From positions 1 through 64,000 of the forward strand of contig JACQBG010000042.1 of NCBI GenBank assembly GCA_016194585.1: 64,000 nucleotides of DNA, in the 5' to 3' direction. The notes beneath the pieces were generated by a model, which saw nothing but the letters and a program-made list of their open reading frames with translations, did no database searches and was not told where the DNA came from. The translations under genes and the position numbers were made by a program. Positions 863 through 5,405 of the stretch are shown piece after piece (position 1 is the first letter of the stretch; every line of letters starts with the position of its first letter). This stretch comes from Gemmatimonadota bacterium (GTDB lineage: Bacteria; Gemmatimonadota; Gemmatimonadetes; Gemmatimonadales; Gemmatimonadaceae).

Positions 863-943
863 CTCGGAATTGTGGCCCCGGCCTCGCGCCCCTGCGCTGC
901 GGCCGTTAGCGTGAAACGCACCTACGACGAGGAATCAACGCCG

Positions 944-2275
944 ATGCCCCCCATTTCGCTCCGTGCCGCCGCGGCGGTCACCGTTTCGCTGGTCGCCTTC
1001 GCCGCCCGTCCGGGACTCGCCCAGAAGGGCGCCGGCACGGACGACATCGACCGGCGCGTCGCCGCCGTCATGCCAAAGGTGATCGAGTGGCGCCGCGACA
1101 TCCACCAGCACCCCGAATTGTCCGGCGAGGAGGTGCGCACGGGCAAGCTCGTCGCCGACCAGCTGCGCGCCATGGGGATCGAGGTGCGCGAGCACGTGTC
1201 GCGAACGGGGGTCGTCGGCGTGCTGCGCGGCGCGAAGCCGGGTCCCGTCGTCGCGCTCCGGGCCGACATGGACGCGCTGCCGGTGACCGAGGAGGTCGAC
1301 CTCCCGTTCAAGTCGACGGTGCGCACGCGGTACAACGGCCAGGACGTGGGGGTGATGCACGCGTGCGGCCACGACGCGCACACCTCGATGCTGCTCGGCG
1401 CGGCGTCGGTGCTCGCCGGGATGCGCGACCAGCTCGCGGGGACGGTGGTGTTCCTGTTCCAGCCGGCGGAAGAAGGCGGGTTCGGCATCGGCGCGGGGCA
1501 CGAGCGGAACGGCGCCGGCGGGATGATCGACGGCGGCGCGCTCGACAACCCGAAGGTCGACGCGGTGTTCGGCATCCACGTGTGGCCCGACGAGCCGGGC
1601 GCGCTGTCGTACAAGCCCGGAGGCGCGATGGCGGCGGCCGACGGCCTGACGATCACGGTGCACGGGCGGCAGACGCACGGCGCGCAGCCGTGGCGCGGCG
1701 TGGACCCGATCGTGGTCGCCTCGGAGATCGTGGGCGCGCTGCAGTCGATCACGGCGCGGCAGACCGACATCACGGCGGCGCCGGCGGTGGTCACGGTCGC
1801 GACGATCCACGGCGGGGTGCGCGGCAACATCATCCCCGACAGCGTGGTGATGACGGGGACGATCCGCACGTTCGACGCGGCGATGCGGAAGGACGTGCAC
1901 ATGCGCATCAAGCGGACGGCGGAGATGATCGCGCAGGCGTCGGGGGCGACGGCGACGGTGGAGATCGGCGTGGGGAGCGACGTGGTCTACAACGACCCCG
2001 CGCTCACGCGGCGCATGGCGGCGACGATCCGCCGCGCGACGACGGCGACGGTGCGCGACAACGCCGTGTGGATGCCGTCGGAGGACTTCTCGCTCTACCA
2101 GCAGAAGGTGCCGGGGGTCTTCTACTTCCTCGGCGTGAACAAGGCCGGGGTGAAGGCGGAGGACGCGGCGGCGAACCACTCGACGAAGTTCTTCGTCAAC
2201 GAGGACGCCCTGCCGACGGGGGTGAAGACGTATGCGACGCTGGCGATCGATTACCTGAAGGGCGCCGCGAAGTGA
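944..2275 (+). CDS. Secreted M20-family amidohydrolase
   Basis: M20D metallohydrolases cleave amide bonds of N-acyl amino acids, hippurate and similar compounds with a di-metal centre. The motifs are clear: ALRADMDALPV, MHACGHDAHTSMLLG (metal-binding Cys and His), FLFQPAEEGG (Glu pair) and HGAQPWRGVDPI in the dimerisation domain. The ATG at 944 gives a signal peptide ending ARPGLA with Gln27 as the first mature residue; an in-frame GTG at 911 is possible but would precede the signal peptide. Mature enzyme location is periplasmic or outside. The stop overlaps the pnuC start by four bases, so it heads a five-gene operon. Substrate is unknown; the NAD-precursor context suggests, without proving, an amide related to nicotinamide. 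Confidence 0.93.
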   Translation: MPPISLRAAAAVTVSLVAFAARPGLAQKGAGTDDIDRRVAAVMPKVIEWRRDIHQHPELSGEEVRTGKLVADQLRAMGIEVREHVSRTGVVGVLRGAKPGPVVALRADMDALPVTEEVDLPFKSTVRTRYNGQDVGVMHACGHDAHTSMLLGAASVLAGMRDQLAGTVVFLFQPAEEGGFGIGAGHERNGAGGMIDGGALDNPKVDAVFGIHVWPDEPGALSYKPGGAMAAADGLTITVHGRQTHGAQPWRGVDPIVVASEIVGALQSITARQTDITAAPAVVTVATIHGGVRGNIIPDSVVMTGTIRTFDAAMRKDVHMRIKRTAEMIAQASGATATVEIGVGSDVVYNDPALTRRMAATIRRATTATVRDNAVWMPSEDFSLYQQKVPGVFYFLGVNKAGVKAEDAAANHSTKFFVNEDALPTGVKTYATLAIDYLKGAAK

Positions 2276-2859
2276 ACTGGCTGGAGACGACCGCCGTCGC
2301 GTTCGGCATCGTGAGCGTATTCCTGAGCGTGCGCCAGAACATCTGGAGCTGGCCGACGGCGATCGTCAACGTGCTGCTGTACGTGCTCGTGTTCCGCGAC
2401 GCGAAGCTCTACGCGGACATGGGGCTGCAGGTGGTGTACTTGGCCCTCTCCGTGTACGGCTGGTACGAGTGGCTGTACGGCGGGGAGCACCGCACGCACC
2501 TCAAGGTGTCGCGGCTGACGGCGCGCACGGGGATCGTGCTCGCCGGGATCGCGGTGGCGTGCGTGGCGTTGCTGGGCACCGTCCTCTACCGCTCGACCGA
2601 CGAGGCGTTGCCGTACGTCGACTCGGCGACGACGAGCACGAGCCTCGTCGCGCAATGGATGATGACGCGCAAGGTGATGGAGAACTGGATGGTGTGGATG
2701 GCGGTGGACGTCGTCTACGTGGGGATGTTCGTCTTCAAGCACCTGTACCTGACGGCGGGGCTCTACGCGGTGTTCTTCGTGCTCGCGGCGATGGGGCATC
2801 GCGAGTGGAAGCGATCGTGGGAGCACGACCGCGCGGCGCTGGCGGTGGCGCCGGCGTGA
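2272..2859 (+). CDS. pnuC: Nicotinamide riboside transporter PnuC
   Basis: PnuC carries nicotinamide riboside across the inner membrane by facilitated diffusion and depends on intracellular phosphorylation to trap it. The 195-residue product is almost all membrane segments and has the family pattern: WSWPTAIVNVLLYVLVFRDA, then YADMGLQVVYLALSVYGWYEW, then a later VDVVYVGMFVFKHLYLTA helix. Length is slightly below the E. coli protein. Start is GTG at 2272, overlapping the upstream stop (GTGA). The next gene, a NadR-type kinase, overlaps by another GTGA and supplies the trapping step, which strongly supports the riboside as substrate over thiamine or riboflavin relatives of the family. Confidence 0.92.
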   Translation: MNWLETTAVAFGIVSVFLSVRQNIWSWPTAIVNVLLYVLVFRDAKLYADMGLQVVYLALSVYGWYEWLYGGEHRTHLKVSRLTARTGIVLAGIAVACVALLGTVLYRSTDEALPYVDSATTSTSLVAQWMMTRKVMENWMVWMAVDVVYVGMFVFKHLYLTAGLYAVFFVLAAMGHREWKRSWEHDRAALAVAPA

Positions 2860-3401
2860 CGCGCCGTCTCGTCGTGACGGGCCCCGAGAGCACGGGGAAG
2901 ACGACGTTGGCCGGCGCGCTCGCGGCGCAGTTCGGCGCGCCGTGCCTGCCAGAGGCGGCCCGCGGTTACGCGGAAGCACGCCGCGCGGAGGGGCGAGCGC
3001 TCACCGCCGACGACGCCGAGCCGATCGCCCGCGCGGCGATCGCGGCGGAGGACGCGGCGCTCGCGGCCGCGCCGCCGCTGCTCGTGCTCGACACCGACCT
3101 CGTGAGCACGGTCGTCTATACGCGGCACTACTACGGCGGCGCGCCGGCGTGGATGGAGGACGAGGCGCGCGGCCGCCGCGGCCACCTCTACTTGCTGTGC
3201 GACGTGGACCTCCCGTGGACGCCGGACGGCGTGCGCGACCGGCCCGTCGCCCGTCGCGAGATGTACCAGCTGTTCGTCGCGGCGCTGCGGGAGTTCGACT
3301 GCGCGGTGGCGACGGTCTCGGGCGCGGGGACGGCGCGGCTCGAGACGGCGCGGCGCGCGATCGCCGCCTCCGGGGTGTTCGACTCGGCGGGACGGCGATG
3401 A
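2856..3401 (+). CDS. NadR-type nicotinamide riboside kinase
   Basis: This P-loop kinase most likely phosphorylates nicotinamide riboside to nicotinamide mononucleotide with ATP in the cytoplasm. The 181-residue product corresponds to the C-terminal kinase domain of NadR alone: a Walker A GPESTGKTTL at residues 9-18, a LDTDLVSTVVYTRHYYG segment typical of the riboside-kinase substrate lid, and a late RPVARREMYQLF helix. It lacks the N-terminal helix-turn-helix and the NMN adenylyltransferase domain of enterobacterial NadR, so it should neither repress transcription nor make NAD itself. Start GTG at 2856 overlaps pnuC by four bases; its stop overlaps the kinase gene downstream by four. Transport and kinase genes side by side are a recurrent salvage pair. 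Confidence 0.9.
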   Translation: MTRRLVVTGPESTGKTTLAGALAAQFGAPCLPEAARGYAEARRAEGRALTADDAEPIARAAIAAEDAALAAAPPLLVLDTDLVSTVVYTRHYYGGAPAWMEDEARGRRGHLYLLCDVDLPWTPDGVRDRPVARREMYQLFVAALREFDCAVATVSGAGTARLETARRAIAASGVFDSAGRR

Positions 3402-4717
3402 TGCAGCCGCTCGGCGCCGCCGTGACGAGCGAGTTCTCGGCCGCGCTGCTGCAGGCGACGATCACGCTCGCGCTGTCGGCGCTGTGCCTCGGCCTCTGGC
3501 GGCGCTACCGGCAGAAGTACTTCATGTGGTGGTCGCTCGCCTTCGCGCTGTTCCTCGTGCGGATCCTGATGATCGTGGTGTTCATCGTGTCGGGCGACCG
3601 CGCGTGGCTCTTCTGGCATCAGGTGATCACGGGGGAGACGGCGCTCGCGCTGCTGTGGGCGGCCGTCGTGTTCGCGCACGCCACCAAGTGGAACCACTGG
3701 TATCACGTGCCCGTCGCGTTCCCGCTGCTGTGGAGCTACGTGGCGGTGATCCAGCTCGACGACTTCAACCTGGCGGCGATCCCCGCCGTGATCTTCCTGT
3801 CGGCGGCGACGCTCTGGACGGGCGCCGTGCTCCTCCGCCACCGGCGCCCCGAGACGTACGGGGCGAGCACCCTGCTCGGCTGGACGTTCCTGCTCTGGGG
3901 GCTGCACCATCTCGATTATCCCGTGCTGCGCGCGCGGGGCGAGTGGAATCCCTGGGGCTACTACATCGACATCCTGTTCCTGCTGGCGGTGGGCGCGGGG
4001 ATCCTGCTCGTGGTGAACGCCGAGCTCGCGCACGGGCTGCAGGCGCGGACGGTGGAGCTCGAGCGGCTGTCGCGCCGGATGGTGCAGCAGCACGAGGAGG
4101 AGCGGCGCCGCCTCTCGCTGGAGCTGCACGACGAGACGGCGCAGGTGTTCGCCGCGGTGAAGATGCAGCTCGGCGTCGTGCGCGAGCGCGTCGCGCCCGA
4201 GCTGGGCGAGCGGCTGGAGCGCGCGCTCGAGCTGGTGGACGAGGGGATGCGCGGCATCCGCAACGTGACCAACGACCTTCGTCCATCGCTGATCGACGAC
4301 CTCGGGCTGGTGCCCGCGCTGCGGTCCCTGGTGGCCGACTTCAGCGAACGGCGGGGCGTGCGGGGGATGCTCGAATCACCCGACCACGTGCCGCCGATGA
4401 GCGACGAGGCGGAGGTGGCGTTGTTCCGCGCGCTGCAGGAGGCGCTGTCGAACGTGGCGCGACACGCGCCGGGCGCTCCGGTGCGGGCGGTGCTCGCGGT
4501 CGACGGCCGGTCGGTGCGTCTGCGGATCTCCGACACGGGACCCGGGTTCGCCGGTGACCATGCCCTCGCGAAATTCGAGTCCGAAGGTCACCTTGGACTG
4601 GCGGGCATGCGCGAGCGCATCACCGCGCTGGGCGGCGAGCTCGCCGTGCAGTCCGCGCCCGGGGCCGGCGTGACGATCGATATCAGAATCCCGTTGTCCG
4701 AAGGAGCACCGTCGTGA
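3398..4717 (+). CDS. Membrane histidine kinase, NarL/DesK-type (HisKA_3)
   Basis: A sensor kinase of 439 residues with about seven predicted membrane helices in residues 14-205 and no large periplasmic loop, so it probably senses something in or near the membrane. A short coiled coil follows, then the HisKA_3 dimerisation helix with RRLSLELHDETAQV, phospho-acceptor His244. The C-terminal HATPase has an N-box ALSNVARHA, a DTGPGF G-box and GLAGMRERI, as in kinases that phosphorylate LuxR-type regulators. Start ATG at 3398 overlaps the kinase upstream (ATGA), and its stop overlaps the response-regulator gene (GTGA). The signal is unknown; operon placement suggests a link to NAD-precursor status. 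Confidence 0.93.
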   Translation: MMQPLGAAVTSEFSAALLQATITLALSALCLGLWRRYRQKYFMWWSLAFALFLVRILMIVVFIVSGDRAWLFWHQVITGETALALLWAAVVFAHATKWNHWYHVPVAFPLLWSYVAVIQLDDFNLAAIPAVIFLSAATLWTGAVLLRHRRPETYGASTLLGWTFLLWGLHHLDYPVLRARGEWNPWGYYIDILFLLAVGAGILLVVNAELAHGLQARTVELERLSRRMVQQHEEERRRLSLELHDETAQVFAAVKMQLGVVRERVAPELGERLERALELVDEGMRGIRNVTNDLRPSLIDDLGLVPALRSLVADFSERRGVRGMLESPDHVPPMSDEAEVALFRALQEALSNVARHAPGAPVRAVLAVDGRSVRLRISDTGPGFAGDHALAKFESEGHLGLAGMRERITALGGELAVQSAPGAGVTIDIRIPLSEGAPS

Positions 4718-5376
4718 CCGAAGGAACTCCCATCCGAGTCGTCGTCGTCGACGATCACGCGATGCTGCGTGAAGGGATCCGCAGCGTGTTGGCGGCGCCG
4801 CTCTTCGACGTCGTGGGCGAGGCCTCGAGCGGCGTCGAGGCGGTGCAGGTGGCCGAGCGGCTGCGGCCCGACGTGGTGGTGCTCGACATCTCGATGCCCG
4901 GCGGCTCCGGACTGCACGCCGTGCCGACGCTCCTCGAGCGCGTCCCCGGCGTCCACATCCTCATGCTGTCGGTGCACGAGGATCTCGAGTACATCCTCGA
5001 GAGCGTGCGAGCGGGCGCCCACGGCTACCTGCGCAAGGATTCCTCGCCGGCAGAACTGCGCACGGCGGTGCAGACGGTGCACCGGGGTGAGGCCTACTTC
5101 TCGCCGCAGGTCGCGACGCAACTCGCGCAAGCCGTCCGCGGCGGCGTGACGTCGGAGCCGGCCGCGAAGGCGCCACGGGCGACCGACGTGCTCACGGCGC
5201 GCGAGCGGGAGATCCTCGTGCACATCGCGCAGGGGAAGACGAACCGCGAGATCGGCGCCGAGCTCGGCATCAGCACGCGCACGGTCGAGGCGCACCGCGA
5301 CTCGCTGATGCGGAAGCTCGGCATCCGCACCGTGGCCGGCCTCACGCGACTGGCGATCGAGCAGAAACTGCTCTGA
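4714..5376 (+). CDS. LuxR/NarL-family response regulator
   Basis: This is the partner of the preceding kinase: 220 residues with a receiver domain (residues 7-122) and a LuxR-type helix-turn-helix (about 158-215). The acidic pair Asp13-Asp14 and the phospho-acceptor Asp58 in VVVLDISMPGG are present, as are LMLSVHED and the conserved Lys in GYLRKDSSP. The DNA-binding part has TAREREILVHIAQGKTNREI and STRTVEAHRDSLMRKLGI. Start is GTG at 4714 inside the kinase stop. The gene ends the operon, and a 12-bp perfect hairpin follows within two bases of its stop. Target promoters are not evident. Confidence 0.95.
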   Translation: MTEGTPIRVVVVDDHAMLREGIRSVLAAPLFDVVGEASSGVEAVQVAERLRPDVVVLDISMPGGSGLHAVPTLLERVPGVHILMLSVHEDLEYILESVRAGAHGYLRKDSSPAELRTAVQTVHRGEAYFSPQVATQLAQAVRGGVTSEPAAKAPRATDVLTAREREILVHIAQGKTNREIGAELGISTRTVEAHRDSLMRKLGIRTVAGLTRLAIEQKLL

Positions 5377-5377
5377 C

Positions 5378-5405
5378 GCGGTGCGCCGGACTACCGGCGC
5401 ACCGC
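5378..5405. terminator. Convergent hairpin between response regulator and M28 peptidase
   Basis: GCGGTGCGCCGG and CCGGCGCACCGC form a perfect 12-bp stem around the loop ACTA. It begins two bases after the response-regulator stop, and the M28 peptidase stop codon (5391-5393, minus strand) lies in the loop and start of the arm. So one arm is made of the last four codons of that gene. There is no U-run on either side. Its position between convergent genes argues for a shared terminator. Confidence 0.6.

What the first reader, a model, noticed from the sequence alone, without database searches (positions are those of the whole stretch)
944..5376. Nicotinamide-riboside salvage operon ending in a two-component system
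Four consecutive four-base overlaps join an exported M20 amidohydrolase, PnuC, a kinase-only NadR, a seven-helix histidine kinase and its response regulator. This suggests sensing coupled to NAD-precursor uptake, and a possible role of the amidohydrolase in releasing the precursor.
Basis: partly seen in the sequence, partly recalled or inferred. Interest (0 to 1): 0.5.

Follow-up and report, generated by a model that had tools for sequence, protein, structure and literature searches.

The report
Vitamin-salvage operon with heme-linked sensor
A real bacterial operon for taking up a building block of NAD ends in a sensor-regulator pair that, judged from relatives, more likely tracks heme or iron supply than the NAD precursor, so one switch may govern the uptake of two nutrients.

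Summary
In detail: five co-directional genes (secreted M20 hydrolase, PnuC, NadR-type kinase, seven-helix histidine kinase, LuxR-type regulator) with four 4-base overlaps at 944-5376. That the kinase senses the NAD precursor is not supported. Of 24 genomes outside the genus with this sensor, 1 has it beside pnuC, 8 have pnuC elsewhere, 15 have none; 58 of 80 named loci are unlinked. The kinase-regulator pair instead keeps company with heme supply: a hemin-type TonB receptor follows it in 18 of 21 judgeable linked and 15 unlinked named loci; ferrochelatase, HmuY or an iron permease in others. Receptor genomes lack heme synthesis: HemB missing in 15 of 16 against 9 of 45, and in 17 of 19 against 8 of 28 in a second set of genomes. 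Best reading: a heme/iron-responsive two-component system with its receptor became the tail of a nicotinamide-riboside operon; this genome lost the receptor and kept the sensor. Heme binding and regulation are inferred. In the window's own genome no such receptor, HemB or HemH was found, so its heme source is unexplained.

The parts
944..2275 (+). Secreted M20-family amidohydrolase/carboxypeptidase-like protein (443 aa)
   Evidence: Pfam Peptidase_M20 142.7 bits, M20_dimer 46.4; TIGR01891 amidohydrolases 335.2 bits over cut-off 153.75; CpsA 397.6 below cut-off 500. Signal-like N-terminus by eye.
2272..2859 (+). PnuC, nicotinamide riboside transporter family (195 aa)
   Evidence: PF04973 194.2 bits; TIGR01528 83.7 bits over cut-off 42.45; aligned with PnuC 4qtn incl. 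WxxW.
2856..3401 (+). NadR-type ribosylnicotinamide kinase, kinase half only (181 aa)
   Evidence: AAA_28 124.9 bits; TIGR01526 matched only at 163-318 of 325, 83.6 bits below cut-off 341.15.
3398..4717 (+). Sensor histidine kinase: 7-helix sensor domain + HisKA_3 + HATPase_c (439 aa), without the GAF-like insert of many distant relatives
3398..4051 (+). Seven-helix sensor domain (residues 1-218), no Pfam family
   Evidence: Best Pfam match of window:3398-4081 is E 0.22, under its cut-off; AlphaFold2 pLDDT 91.0, pTM 0.86; 23 invariant columns in 29 sequences incl. H74, H170, H171, D173, Y174, R178, D191.
3905..3922 (+). HHLDYP motif (residues 170-175) at the end of helix 6; HHLDY invariant in 29 sequences, the last residue P or T
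4127..4129 (+). H244, phospho-acceptor histidine of the HisKA_3 box (inferred from the motif HDET)
   Evidence: Invariant in 16 sequences; lies within the HisKA_3 match 235-297.
4714..5376 (+). Response regulator, receiver + LuxR/NarL-type DNA-binding domain (220 aa); D58 (4885-4887) is the likely phospho-acceptor (inferred)
   Evidence: Response_reg 93.3 bits, GerE 67.7 bits.
5377..5390 (.). Site where many relatives carry a same-strand TonB-dependent receptor; here only 14 bases separate the regulator from the end of the minus-strand M28 peptidase gene

Best explanation
The locus is a nicotinamide-riboside salvage operon (PnuC import, NadR-type kinase making NMN, preceded by a secreted M20 hydrolase of unknown substrate) that has captured, at its 3' end, a two-component system which in this phylum goes with heme supply. 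Mechanism proposed: the seven-helix sensor domain reads heme or iron status at the outer face of the inner membrane through an invariant cluster (H74, H170, H171, D173, Y174, R178, W183, Y188); the kinase is phosphorylated at H244 and passes the phosphate to D58 of the LuxR-type regulator, which controls its own operon. In the form kept by many relatives the operon ends with a TonB-dependent receptor, most likely for heme, so heme uptake and NAD-precursor salvage share one transcript and one switch. In the window's species the receptor is gone, while kinase and regulator remain inside the operon. Shown here: gene content, order, overlaps, conservation, the downstream receptor in relatives, the inverse distribution of receptor and heme synthesis, purifying selection on kinase and regulator. 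Inferred: that the genes are one transcript, that the receptor carries heme, that the sensor reads heme or iron, and that the regulator controls this operon.
For: Receptor on the same strand within about 410 bases after the regulator in 18 of 21 linked named loci where it can be judged and in 15 unlinked named loci, so it follows the kinase-regulator pair, not pnuC. Its best NCBIfam model is TonB-hemin (225 bits, under the 316.85 cut-off), next hemoglobin/transferrin. Other next genes: ferrochelatase in 5 loci (L183, L184, L187, L097, L102), HmuY in 3 (L185, L213; L178 after one gene), iron permease FTR1 in 1 (L206) (Pfam run on L187, L178, L206; ferrochelatase of L097 and L102 also by PF00762; the rest by blastp cluster). 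61 genomes: with receptor HemB absent in 15 of 16, without it 9 of 45 (Fisher p 2.4e-7, not corrected for kinship); HemH absent 15 of 16 against 17 of 45. Within the genus (18 genomes): all 11 receptor-bearing genomes show no HemB or HemH, while the three that lack the receptor but keep the kinase besides the window's (G010, G012, G015) have both; G002, nested among them in the kinase tree (L145), has the receptor and neither. Second set of 49 genomes: HemB absent in 17 of 19 against 8 of 28, 2 undeterminable (p 6.3e-5). Sensor residues shared across linked and unlinked kinases. dN/dS 0.22 and 0.12 for kinase and regulator, window against G017; 0.08 and 0.08 for G012 against G015, both receptor-less. 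NadA is present in the window's genome, so NAD can probably be made de novo.
Against: In the window's own genome no receptor (E<=1e-60; 18 of 28 first-look candidates scored), HemB or HemH was found, and its other TonB receptors score under the hemin cut-off (best 96 bits), so heme supply there is unexplained. No heme-binding test was possible; the receptor misses the family cut-off in 3 of 3 tested. No inner-membrane heme transporter is in the operon. G029, L161 and L186 carry both receptor and HemB. G001 has a partial HemH match but no HemB and no receptor. Among unlinked pairs many have other neighbours: PAP2 phosphatase, transglycosylase, subtilase, genes without Pfam match, or an opposite-strand gene. 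The ferrochelatase loci form one clade and two of the three HmuY loci another in the tree, so the number of independent associations is small. Draft genomes can fake gene absence.
Confidence: 0.58

Rival explanations
1. The kinase senses the NAD precursor or NAD status and switches the salvage operon.
For: Tight overlaps and conserved order in the genus and in G029 and its kin; kinase and regulator are kept where the receptor is missing (window, G010, G012, G015).
Against: Same sensor with the same invariant residues in 15 of 24 outside genomes that show no pnuC; pnuC without the pair in 16 of 31 pnuC genomes; G001 keeps pnuC-nadR without the pair; no PnuC, NadR kinase or M20 homolog in the 58 unlinked named loci (other NAD genes were not sought there).
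Confidence: 0.1
2. The pair senses something more general (membrane state, redox, oxygen, light) and regulates heme-uptake genes among others; the heme link is in its targets, not in its signal.
For: Mixed neighbours of unlinked pairs (PAP2, transglycosylase, subtilase); the sensor model is a seven-helix bundle with rhodopsin/GPCR-like matches (Foldseek best E 0.042, VIA Z up to 14.9); distant relatives carry a GAF-like insert, which could take another input.
Against: The most frequent identified neighbours are heme/iron genes; invariant His and other polar residues lie at one face of the model's membrane domain (orientation inferred).
Confidence: 0.2
3. The TonB-dependent receptor imports not heme but another tetrapyrrole or cofactor (cobalamin, or a nicotinamide compound), and the link with HemB loss is indirect.
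For: Receptor falls below the hemin family cut-off; the TonB-B12 model also matches (118.8 bits); HemB loss affects all tetrapyrroles (recalled).
Against: HemH, the ferrochelatase, is missing together with HemB; hemin models score highest in the three receptors tested; the receptor occurs in loci without pnuC.
Confidence: 0.12

Closest known systems
PnuC/NadR nicotinamide riboside salvage (Haemophilus, enterobacteria; recalled)
   Same: PnuC-family transporter and ribosylnicotinamide kinase as neighbours.
   Different: Here the kinase stands alone without the adenylyltransferase and repressor parts; no NAD riboswitch in the window at Rfam gathering scores; a two-component system follows instead.
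HrrSA / ChrSA heme-sensing two-component systems of Corynebacteriaceae
   Same: Multi-helix membrane sensor reported to bind heme in a pocket within its helices (PMC11442138, passages); tied to heme genes. The HisKA_3/LuxR-type make-up of HrrSA is recalled.
   Different: Seven helices, not six; common descent of the sensor was not tested; the usual partner here is a TonB receptor, and here it controls (by inference) a pnuC operon.
MctSR two-component system
   Same: Best NCBIfam matches of kinase (153.4 bits) and regulator (199.8 bits).
   Different: Both below the cut-offs (700 and 300); kinase match covers residues 192-434 only, not the sensor.
TonB-dependent hemin receptors (TIGR01785; PhuR, ShuA)
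   Same: Plug and barrel; best family model; PhuR and ShuA among solved relatives.
   Different: Below the family cut-off; substrate untested; absent from the window.
Known NAD-supply regulators (NiaR, NrtR, NadR, NadQ, NAD riboswitches)
   Same: Control pnuC or NAD synthesis genes.
   Different: None is a two-component system (NiaR, NrtR, NadR seen in a search listing; riboswitch in passages; NadQ recalled).

Membership tests
PnuC nicotinamide riboside transporter | Full-length match over curated cut-offs | tested here: met
   PF04973 194.2/27.3 bits over positions 1-175; TIGR01528 83.7/42.45
PnuC nicotinamide riboside transporter | WxxW motif of the substrate helix | tested here: met
   Aligned with 4qtn; motif's role from a PMC7162841 passage
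PnuC nicotinamide riboside transporter | Transports nicotinamide riboside rather than thiamine, riboflavin or deoxynucleosides | not testable with these tools
   Adjacent NadR-type kinase argues for NR; PnuT/PnuX/PnuN exist (PMC7749635 passages)
NadR (trifunctional) | Repressor + NMN adenylyltransferase + kinase | tested here: not met
   181 aa; only 163-318 of 325 of TIGR01526 matched, 83.6 under 341.15 bits
HisKA_3 / LuxR-type two-component system | HisKA_3 with H box, HATPase_c, receiver with Asp, GerE domain | tested here: met
Heme-sensing two-component systems (HrrSA/ChrSA type) | Sensor kinase binds heme in its membrane domain | not testable with these tools
   Invariant H74, H170, H171, Y174, Y188 are candidates
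Heme-sensing two-component systems (HrrSA/ChrSA type) | Sensor homologous to HrrS/ChrS | not tested
   No comparison with those sequences was run
MctSR | NCBIfam equivalog cut-offs | tested here: not met
   153.4 < 700; 199.8 < 300
TonB-dependent hemin receptor (TIGR01785), for the receptor in relatives | Score over curated cut-off | tested here: not met
   225.2, 233.8 and 210.3 against 316.85 in three receptors
TonB-dependent receptor, for the receptor in relatives | Plug and beta-barrel domains | tested here: met
   PF07715 and PF00593 over cut-off in three of three
M20 amidohydrolase subfamily (TIGR01891) | Score over curated cut-off | tested here: met
   335.2/153.75; solved relatives YxeP and IAA-amino acid hydrolase homolog
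Carboxypeptidase CpsA (NF040868) | Score over curated cut-off | tested here: not met
   397.6 < 500

The most novel reading that the evidence does not exclude
Heme-dependent Gemmatimonadota use one operon, run by a new family of seven-helix, outward-facing heme-sensing histidine kinases, to acquire both heme (TonB receptor) and an NAD precursor (PnuC/NadR kinase), an environmental parallel to the X- and V-factor needs of Haemophilus. Lineages have lost either the receptor or the heme-synthesis cluster, and where the receptor was lost the heme sensor stayed on as the switch for NAD-precursor salvage. It would be the first two-component control of nicotinamide riboside uptake known to me.
Probability: 0.33. 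Interest if true: 0.75.

Novelty: new variant of a known kind. Interest (0 to 1): 0.55.

Why it matters
If true it gives a family of uncharacterised membrane sensors, seen here almost only in Gemmatimonadota, a testable signal; predicts heme auxotrophy in a largely uncultured phylum (hemin supplementation can be tried in cultivation); and couples two cofactor economies, heme and NAD, in one operon. The ten library searches (open-licence PMC only; results seen as listings, with passages of PMC11442138, PMC10581226, PMC7749635 and PMC7162841) showed no paper on this. The main heme-auxotrophy paper (Kim et al. 2021, seen only as a reference in PMC11442138) is not held, so mention of Gemmatimonadota there cannot be excluded. 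One phylum survey lists enzymes of heme biosynthesis among basic genes of all environments (PMC10581226, passages), which the distribution found here qualifies.

Tried and rejected
NAD riboswitch or other known RNA: none in the window at Rfam gathering scores. Sensor profile against PDB sequences: no match at E<=1. Sensor fold: the full-length model's listed matches were kinase cores and a few other signalling proteins; the sensor alone gave no Foldseek match at E<=0.001, best marine rhodopsin 0.042, and GPCR/rhodopsin-like seven-helix rows with VIA Z up to 14.9, the top one a designed protein, which I take as a common arrangement, not kinship. Idea that the 249-aa membrane protein near the receptor is a sensor paralog: hhalign probability 2.5%, rejected. 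Promoter comparison upstream of M20 (20 loci): by eye only, no inverted repeat shared by all, no motif statistics. Heme source of the window's genome: 22 sub-threshold matches to TonB-hemin and three stretches read for ORFs, without family scans; inconclusive. M20 as a precursor-releasing enzyme: no supporting association. MctSR: rejected on scores. Single origin of the pnuC link: the kinase tree needs two changes, since three unlinked short-form kinases (L152, L159, L160) nest inside the linked clade, so one gain plus one loss or two gains.

Rows dropped. Kinase tree: 94 loci given (window, 80 named, 13 others), L171, L175 and L215 skipped for want of a kinase core, 91 used; most other fetched kinase loci are the same contigs as named loci, but L106 (G032), L130 (G038) and L119 (G006) were left out without such a stand-in. 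Neighbour clustering: 71 unlinked loci (58 named, 13 others). The receptor search used E<=1e-60 and scored at most 18 first-look candidates per genome, so weaker or unscored receptors are not counted. The sensor scan rests on two peptide patterns and keeps the best 80 of 170.
Full report
OBSERVATION. The window is the first 64,000 bases of contig C7 of genome G000. Reading the DNA and translations confirms five + strand genes: M20 hydrolase 944-2275, PnuC 2272-2859, NadR-type kinase 2856-3401, histidine kinase 3398-4717, response regulator 4714-5376, with overlaps GTGA, GTGA, ATGA and GTGA. The flanks are infA and osmC on the minus strand upstream and an M28 peptidase on the minus strand, whose end lies 14 bases after the regulator. 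The AlphaFold2 model of the sensor domain has seven long helices at 7-37, 40-65, 68-92, 100-119, 123-147, 151-171 and 183-227.

CONSERVATION. In 61 genomes (own, 17 of the genus, 43 wider) I searched the M20, PnuC, NadR-kinase and histidine-kinase proteins and compared neighbourhoods by tblastn. Among the 17 other genus members the five-gene order is complete in 12 (G009 with a stop inside the kinase gene; G004 with the NadR kinase in two pieces), cut by contig ends in 2 (G002, G014), lacks kinase and regulator in 1 (G001), and is not found in 2 incomplete genomes (G011, G013). Outside the genus it is complete in 1 of 43 (G029), again next to infA. PnuC is in 31 of 61 genomes; 15 of the 31 have the sensor kinase beside it. 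In the 15 pnuC loci examined outside the genus cassette and G029, the NadR-type kinase is adjacent in 9 and the sensor-type kinase in none.

THE KINASE WITHOUT PNUC. At least 39 of 61 genomes hold a kinase with this sensor domain. Of 24 outside the genus, 1 is beside pnuC, 8 have pnuC elsewhere, 15 show none. A pattern-based scan of genome contigs (one genome for each of 84,980 species) found 170 relatives of the sensor; the best 80 were kept. 77 of the 80 are titled Gemmatimonadota, a group or genus within it, or Candidatus Benthicola (placed in Gemmatimonadota by the tree labels); one is titled Candidatus Kuenenia but falls among Gemmatimonadaceae in the tree, and two are titled only as bacteria. 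Of the 80, 22 are linked to M20-pnuC-nadR (some cut by contig ends) and 58 show no M20, PnuC or NadR-kinase match in the DNA held, some on short contigs. All 22 linked kinases are the short form, as are several unlinked ones (for example L152, L159, L160, L169); the rest of the unlinked have an extra segment between sensor and kinase core that resembles GAF, below Pfam cut-offs in the three tested. In the tree (91 rows) linked kinases lie in one clade of 26 (support 100/99) that also holds unlinked L152, L159 and L160. So the pair is older than its link to pnuC.

THE SIXTH GENE. In many linked loci a same-strand TonB-dependent receptor of about 720-750 aa follows the regulator: 18 of 21 linked named loci that can be judged, absent in L142, L143 and L144, undeterminable in L157. 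A homologous receptor (42-52% identity to that of L138, one fragment 65%) follows the regulator in 15 unlinked named loci. It therefore goes with kinase and regulator rather than with pnuC. Three were tested: plug and barrel in all, best model TonB-hemin at 210-234 bits under the cut-off of 316.85; solved relatives of the L138 receptor include the colicin I receptor, PhuR and ShuA. In other unlinked loci the next gene is ferrochelatase (L183, L184, L187, L097, L102), HmuY (L185, L213; L178 after one gene) or iron permease FTR1 (L206). Against this, others have PAP2, a transglycosylase, a subtilase, a gene without Pfam match or an opposite-strand gene.

RECEPTOR AGAINST HEME SYNTHESIS. With the receptor at E<=1e-60, HemH and HemB in the same 61 genomes: receptor present, HemB absent 15 of 16 and HemH absent 15 of 16 (exception G029 for both); receptor absent, HemB absent 9 of 45 and HemH absent 17 of 45 (p 2.4e-7 and 9.6e-5, kinship not corrected). 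In genomes at least 90% complete: HemB absent 13 of 14 against 6 of 37. In the genus all 11 receptor genomes lack both (p 0.043 for HemB, 0.011 for HemH over 18 genomes); G010, G012 and G015, without the receptor but with kinase and regulator, have both, in a hem cluster that also seems to contain hemA-, hemC-, hemL- and hemE-like genes (named by eye from their sequences). G000, G011, G013 lack all three, and G001 has only a partial HemH match. The HemB of G010, G012 and G015 groups with that of G029 and of G041/G053 (100/100), so the cluster may be ancestral in this lineage and lost elsewhere, or transferred; I did not decide. G002 (L145), nested between L142 and L143/L144 in the kinase tree, shows the opposite state, so shared ancestry alone does not explain the pattern. 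A second set of 49 genomes reached through the named loci gave HemB absent in 17 of 19 with the receptor after the regulator and 8 of 28 without, 2 undeterminable (p 6.3e-5); completeness of these genomes is not given. Three of those eight (L178, L191, L196) carry the unnamed 249-aa membrane protein, and L178 also HmuY and a receptor fragment.

HOW IT MOST LIKELY WORKS. Where the receptor is, heme synthesis tends to be missing, hence it is most likely a heme receptor (inferred from distribution and family). The kinase and regulator accompany heme uptake or heme synthesis genes; hence they most likely read heme or iron status (inferred). The invariant residues H74, H170, H171, D173, Y174, R178, W183, G187, Y188 and D191 lie near the start of helix 3, the end of helix 6, the following loop and the start of helix 7 in the model; if helix 7 runs into the cytoplasmic kinase these ends face the periplasm. 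H244 and D58 are the expected phospho-acceptors. The NR-salvage genes were joined upstream in the ancestor of the genus and of the G029 group, or twice. The window's species, and G010, G012 and G015, kept the pair without the receptor. The genes stay under purifying selection (window against G017, which has the receptor: kinase 0.216, regulator 0.116; G012 against G015, both without it: 0.078 and 0.080), so the pair has work beyond the receptor, most simply the operon it sits in. The M20 enzyme's role is unknown. NadA is present (48 of 61 genomes, the window's among them), so NR salvage is probably a supplement, not a need.

WEAK POINTS. No step from signal to promoter was shown, and one transcript is inferred from spacing. 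In the window's genome no receptor, HemB or HemH was found; its other hemin-type matches are weak (best 96 bits), so whether it needs heme, and how it gets it, is open. The tests are not corrected for phylogeny. Absences in draft genomes can be false, though the pattern repeats in those at least 90% complete.

COMPARISON AND NOVELTY. HrrS and ChrS are six-helix kinases that bind heme within the membrane (PMC11442138, passages only): a working model, not a shown relative. Regulators of NAD supply seen in the literature listing are NiaR, NrtR and NadR, and in passages an NAD riboswitch. Searches for pnuC with two-component system, pnuC with TonB, Gemmatimonadota with PnuC, and Gemmatimonadota with heme auxotrophy or heme biosynthesis gave nothing on point in their listings. 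I rate it a new variant of a known kind: known parts, a sensor domain without a Pfam model, and an operon combination I have not seen described.

Noticed in passing
L172:13848-14591, also L167, L168, L169, L170, L178, L179, L186, L191, L196: A conserved 235-250 aa membrane-type protein with no Pfam match (tested for L172) follows the TonB receptor or the regulator in ten unlinked loci (56-69% identity to the first). Not similar to the sensor domain; a candidate partner or inner-membrane permease.
   Followed up: partly
L189 (CALQGY020000003.1): Contig titled Candidatus Kuenenia stuttgartiensis carries a kinase that groups with Gemmatimonadaceae and shares their neighbours; probably a mislabelled or misbinned record.
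   Followed up: partly
window 895-910 and the same place in other linked loci: By eye, a GTTA(G/C)C(G/C)T element lies about 30-45 bases before the assumed M20 start in 11 of 20 linked loci; four loci (L146-L149) share TAATTGTAG instead. Possibly a promoter element.
   Followed up: no
L229:5627-13740 (G015:C27): A hem gene cluster of the type shared by G010, G012, G015, G029, G041 and G053 has a HemB apart from that of the other family members tested; horizontal transfer or differential loss.
   Followed up: partly
L258:199-3031 (G000:C17): In the window's genome an ABC-transporter ATPase-like ORF (by eye) directly precedes a TonB-receptor ORF near a contig end; a candidate for its iron, heme or cobalamin uptake.
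   Followed up: no
G007:C252:7346-9526 and G007:C202:5-1969: G007 has two matches to the receptor (59% identity each, the second at a contig end).
   Followed up: no
L113 (G001:C7): G001 keeps infA-M20-PnuC-NadR kinase but lacks the kinase-regulator pair and receptor at this locus; its NadR-kinase match has a TGA inside.
   Followed up: no
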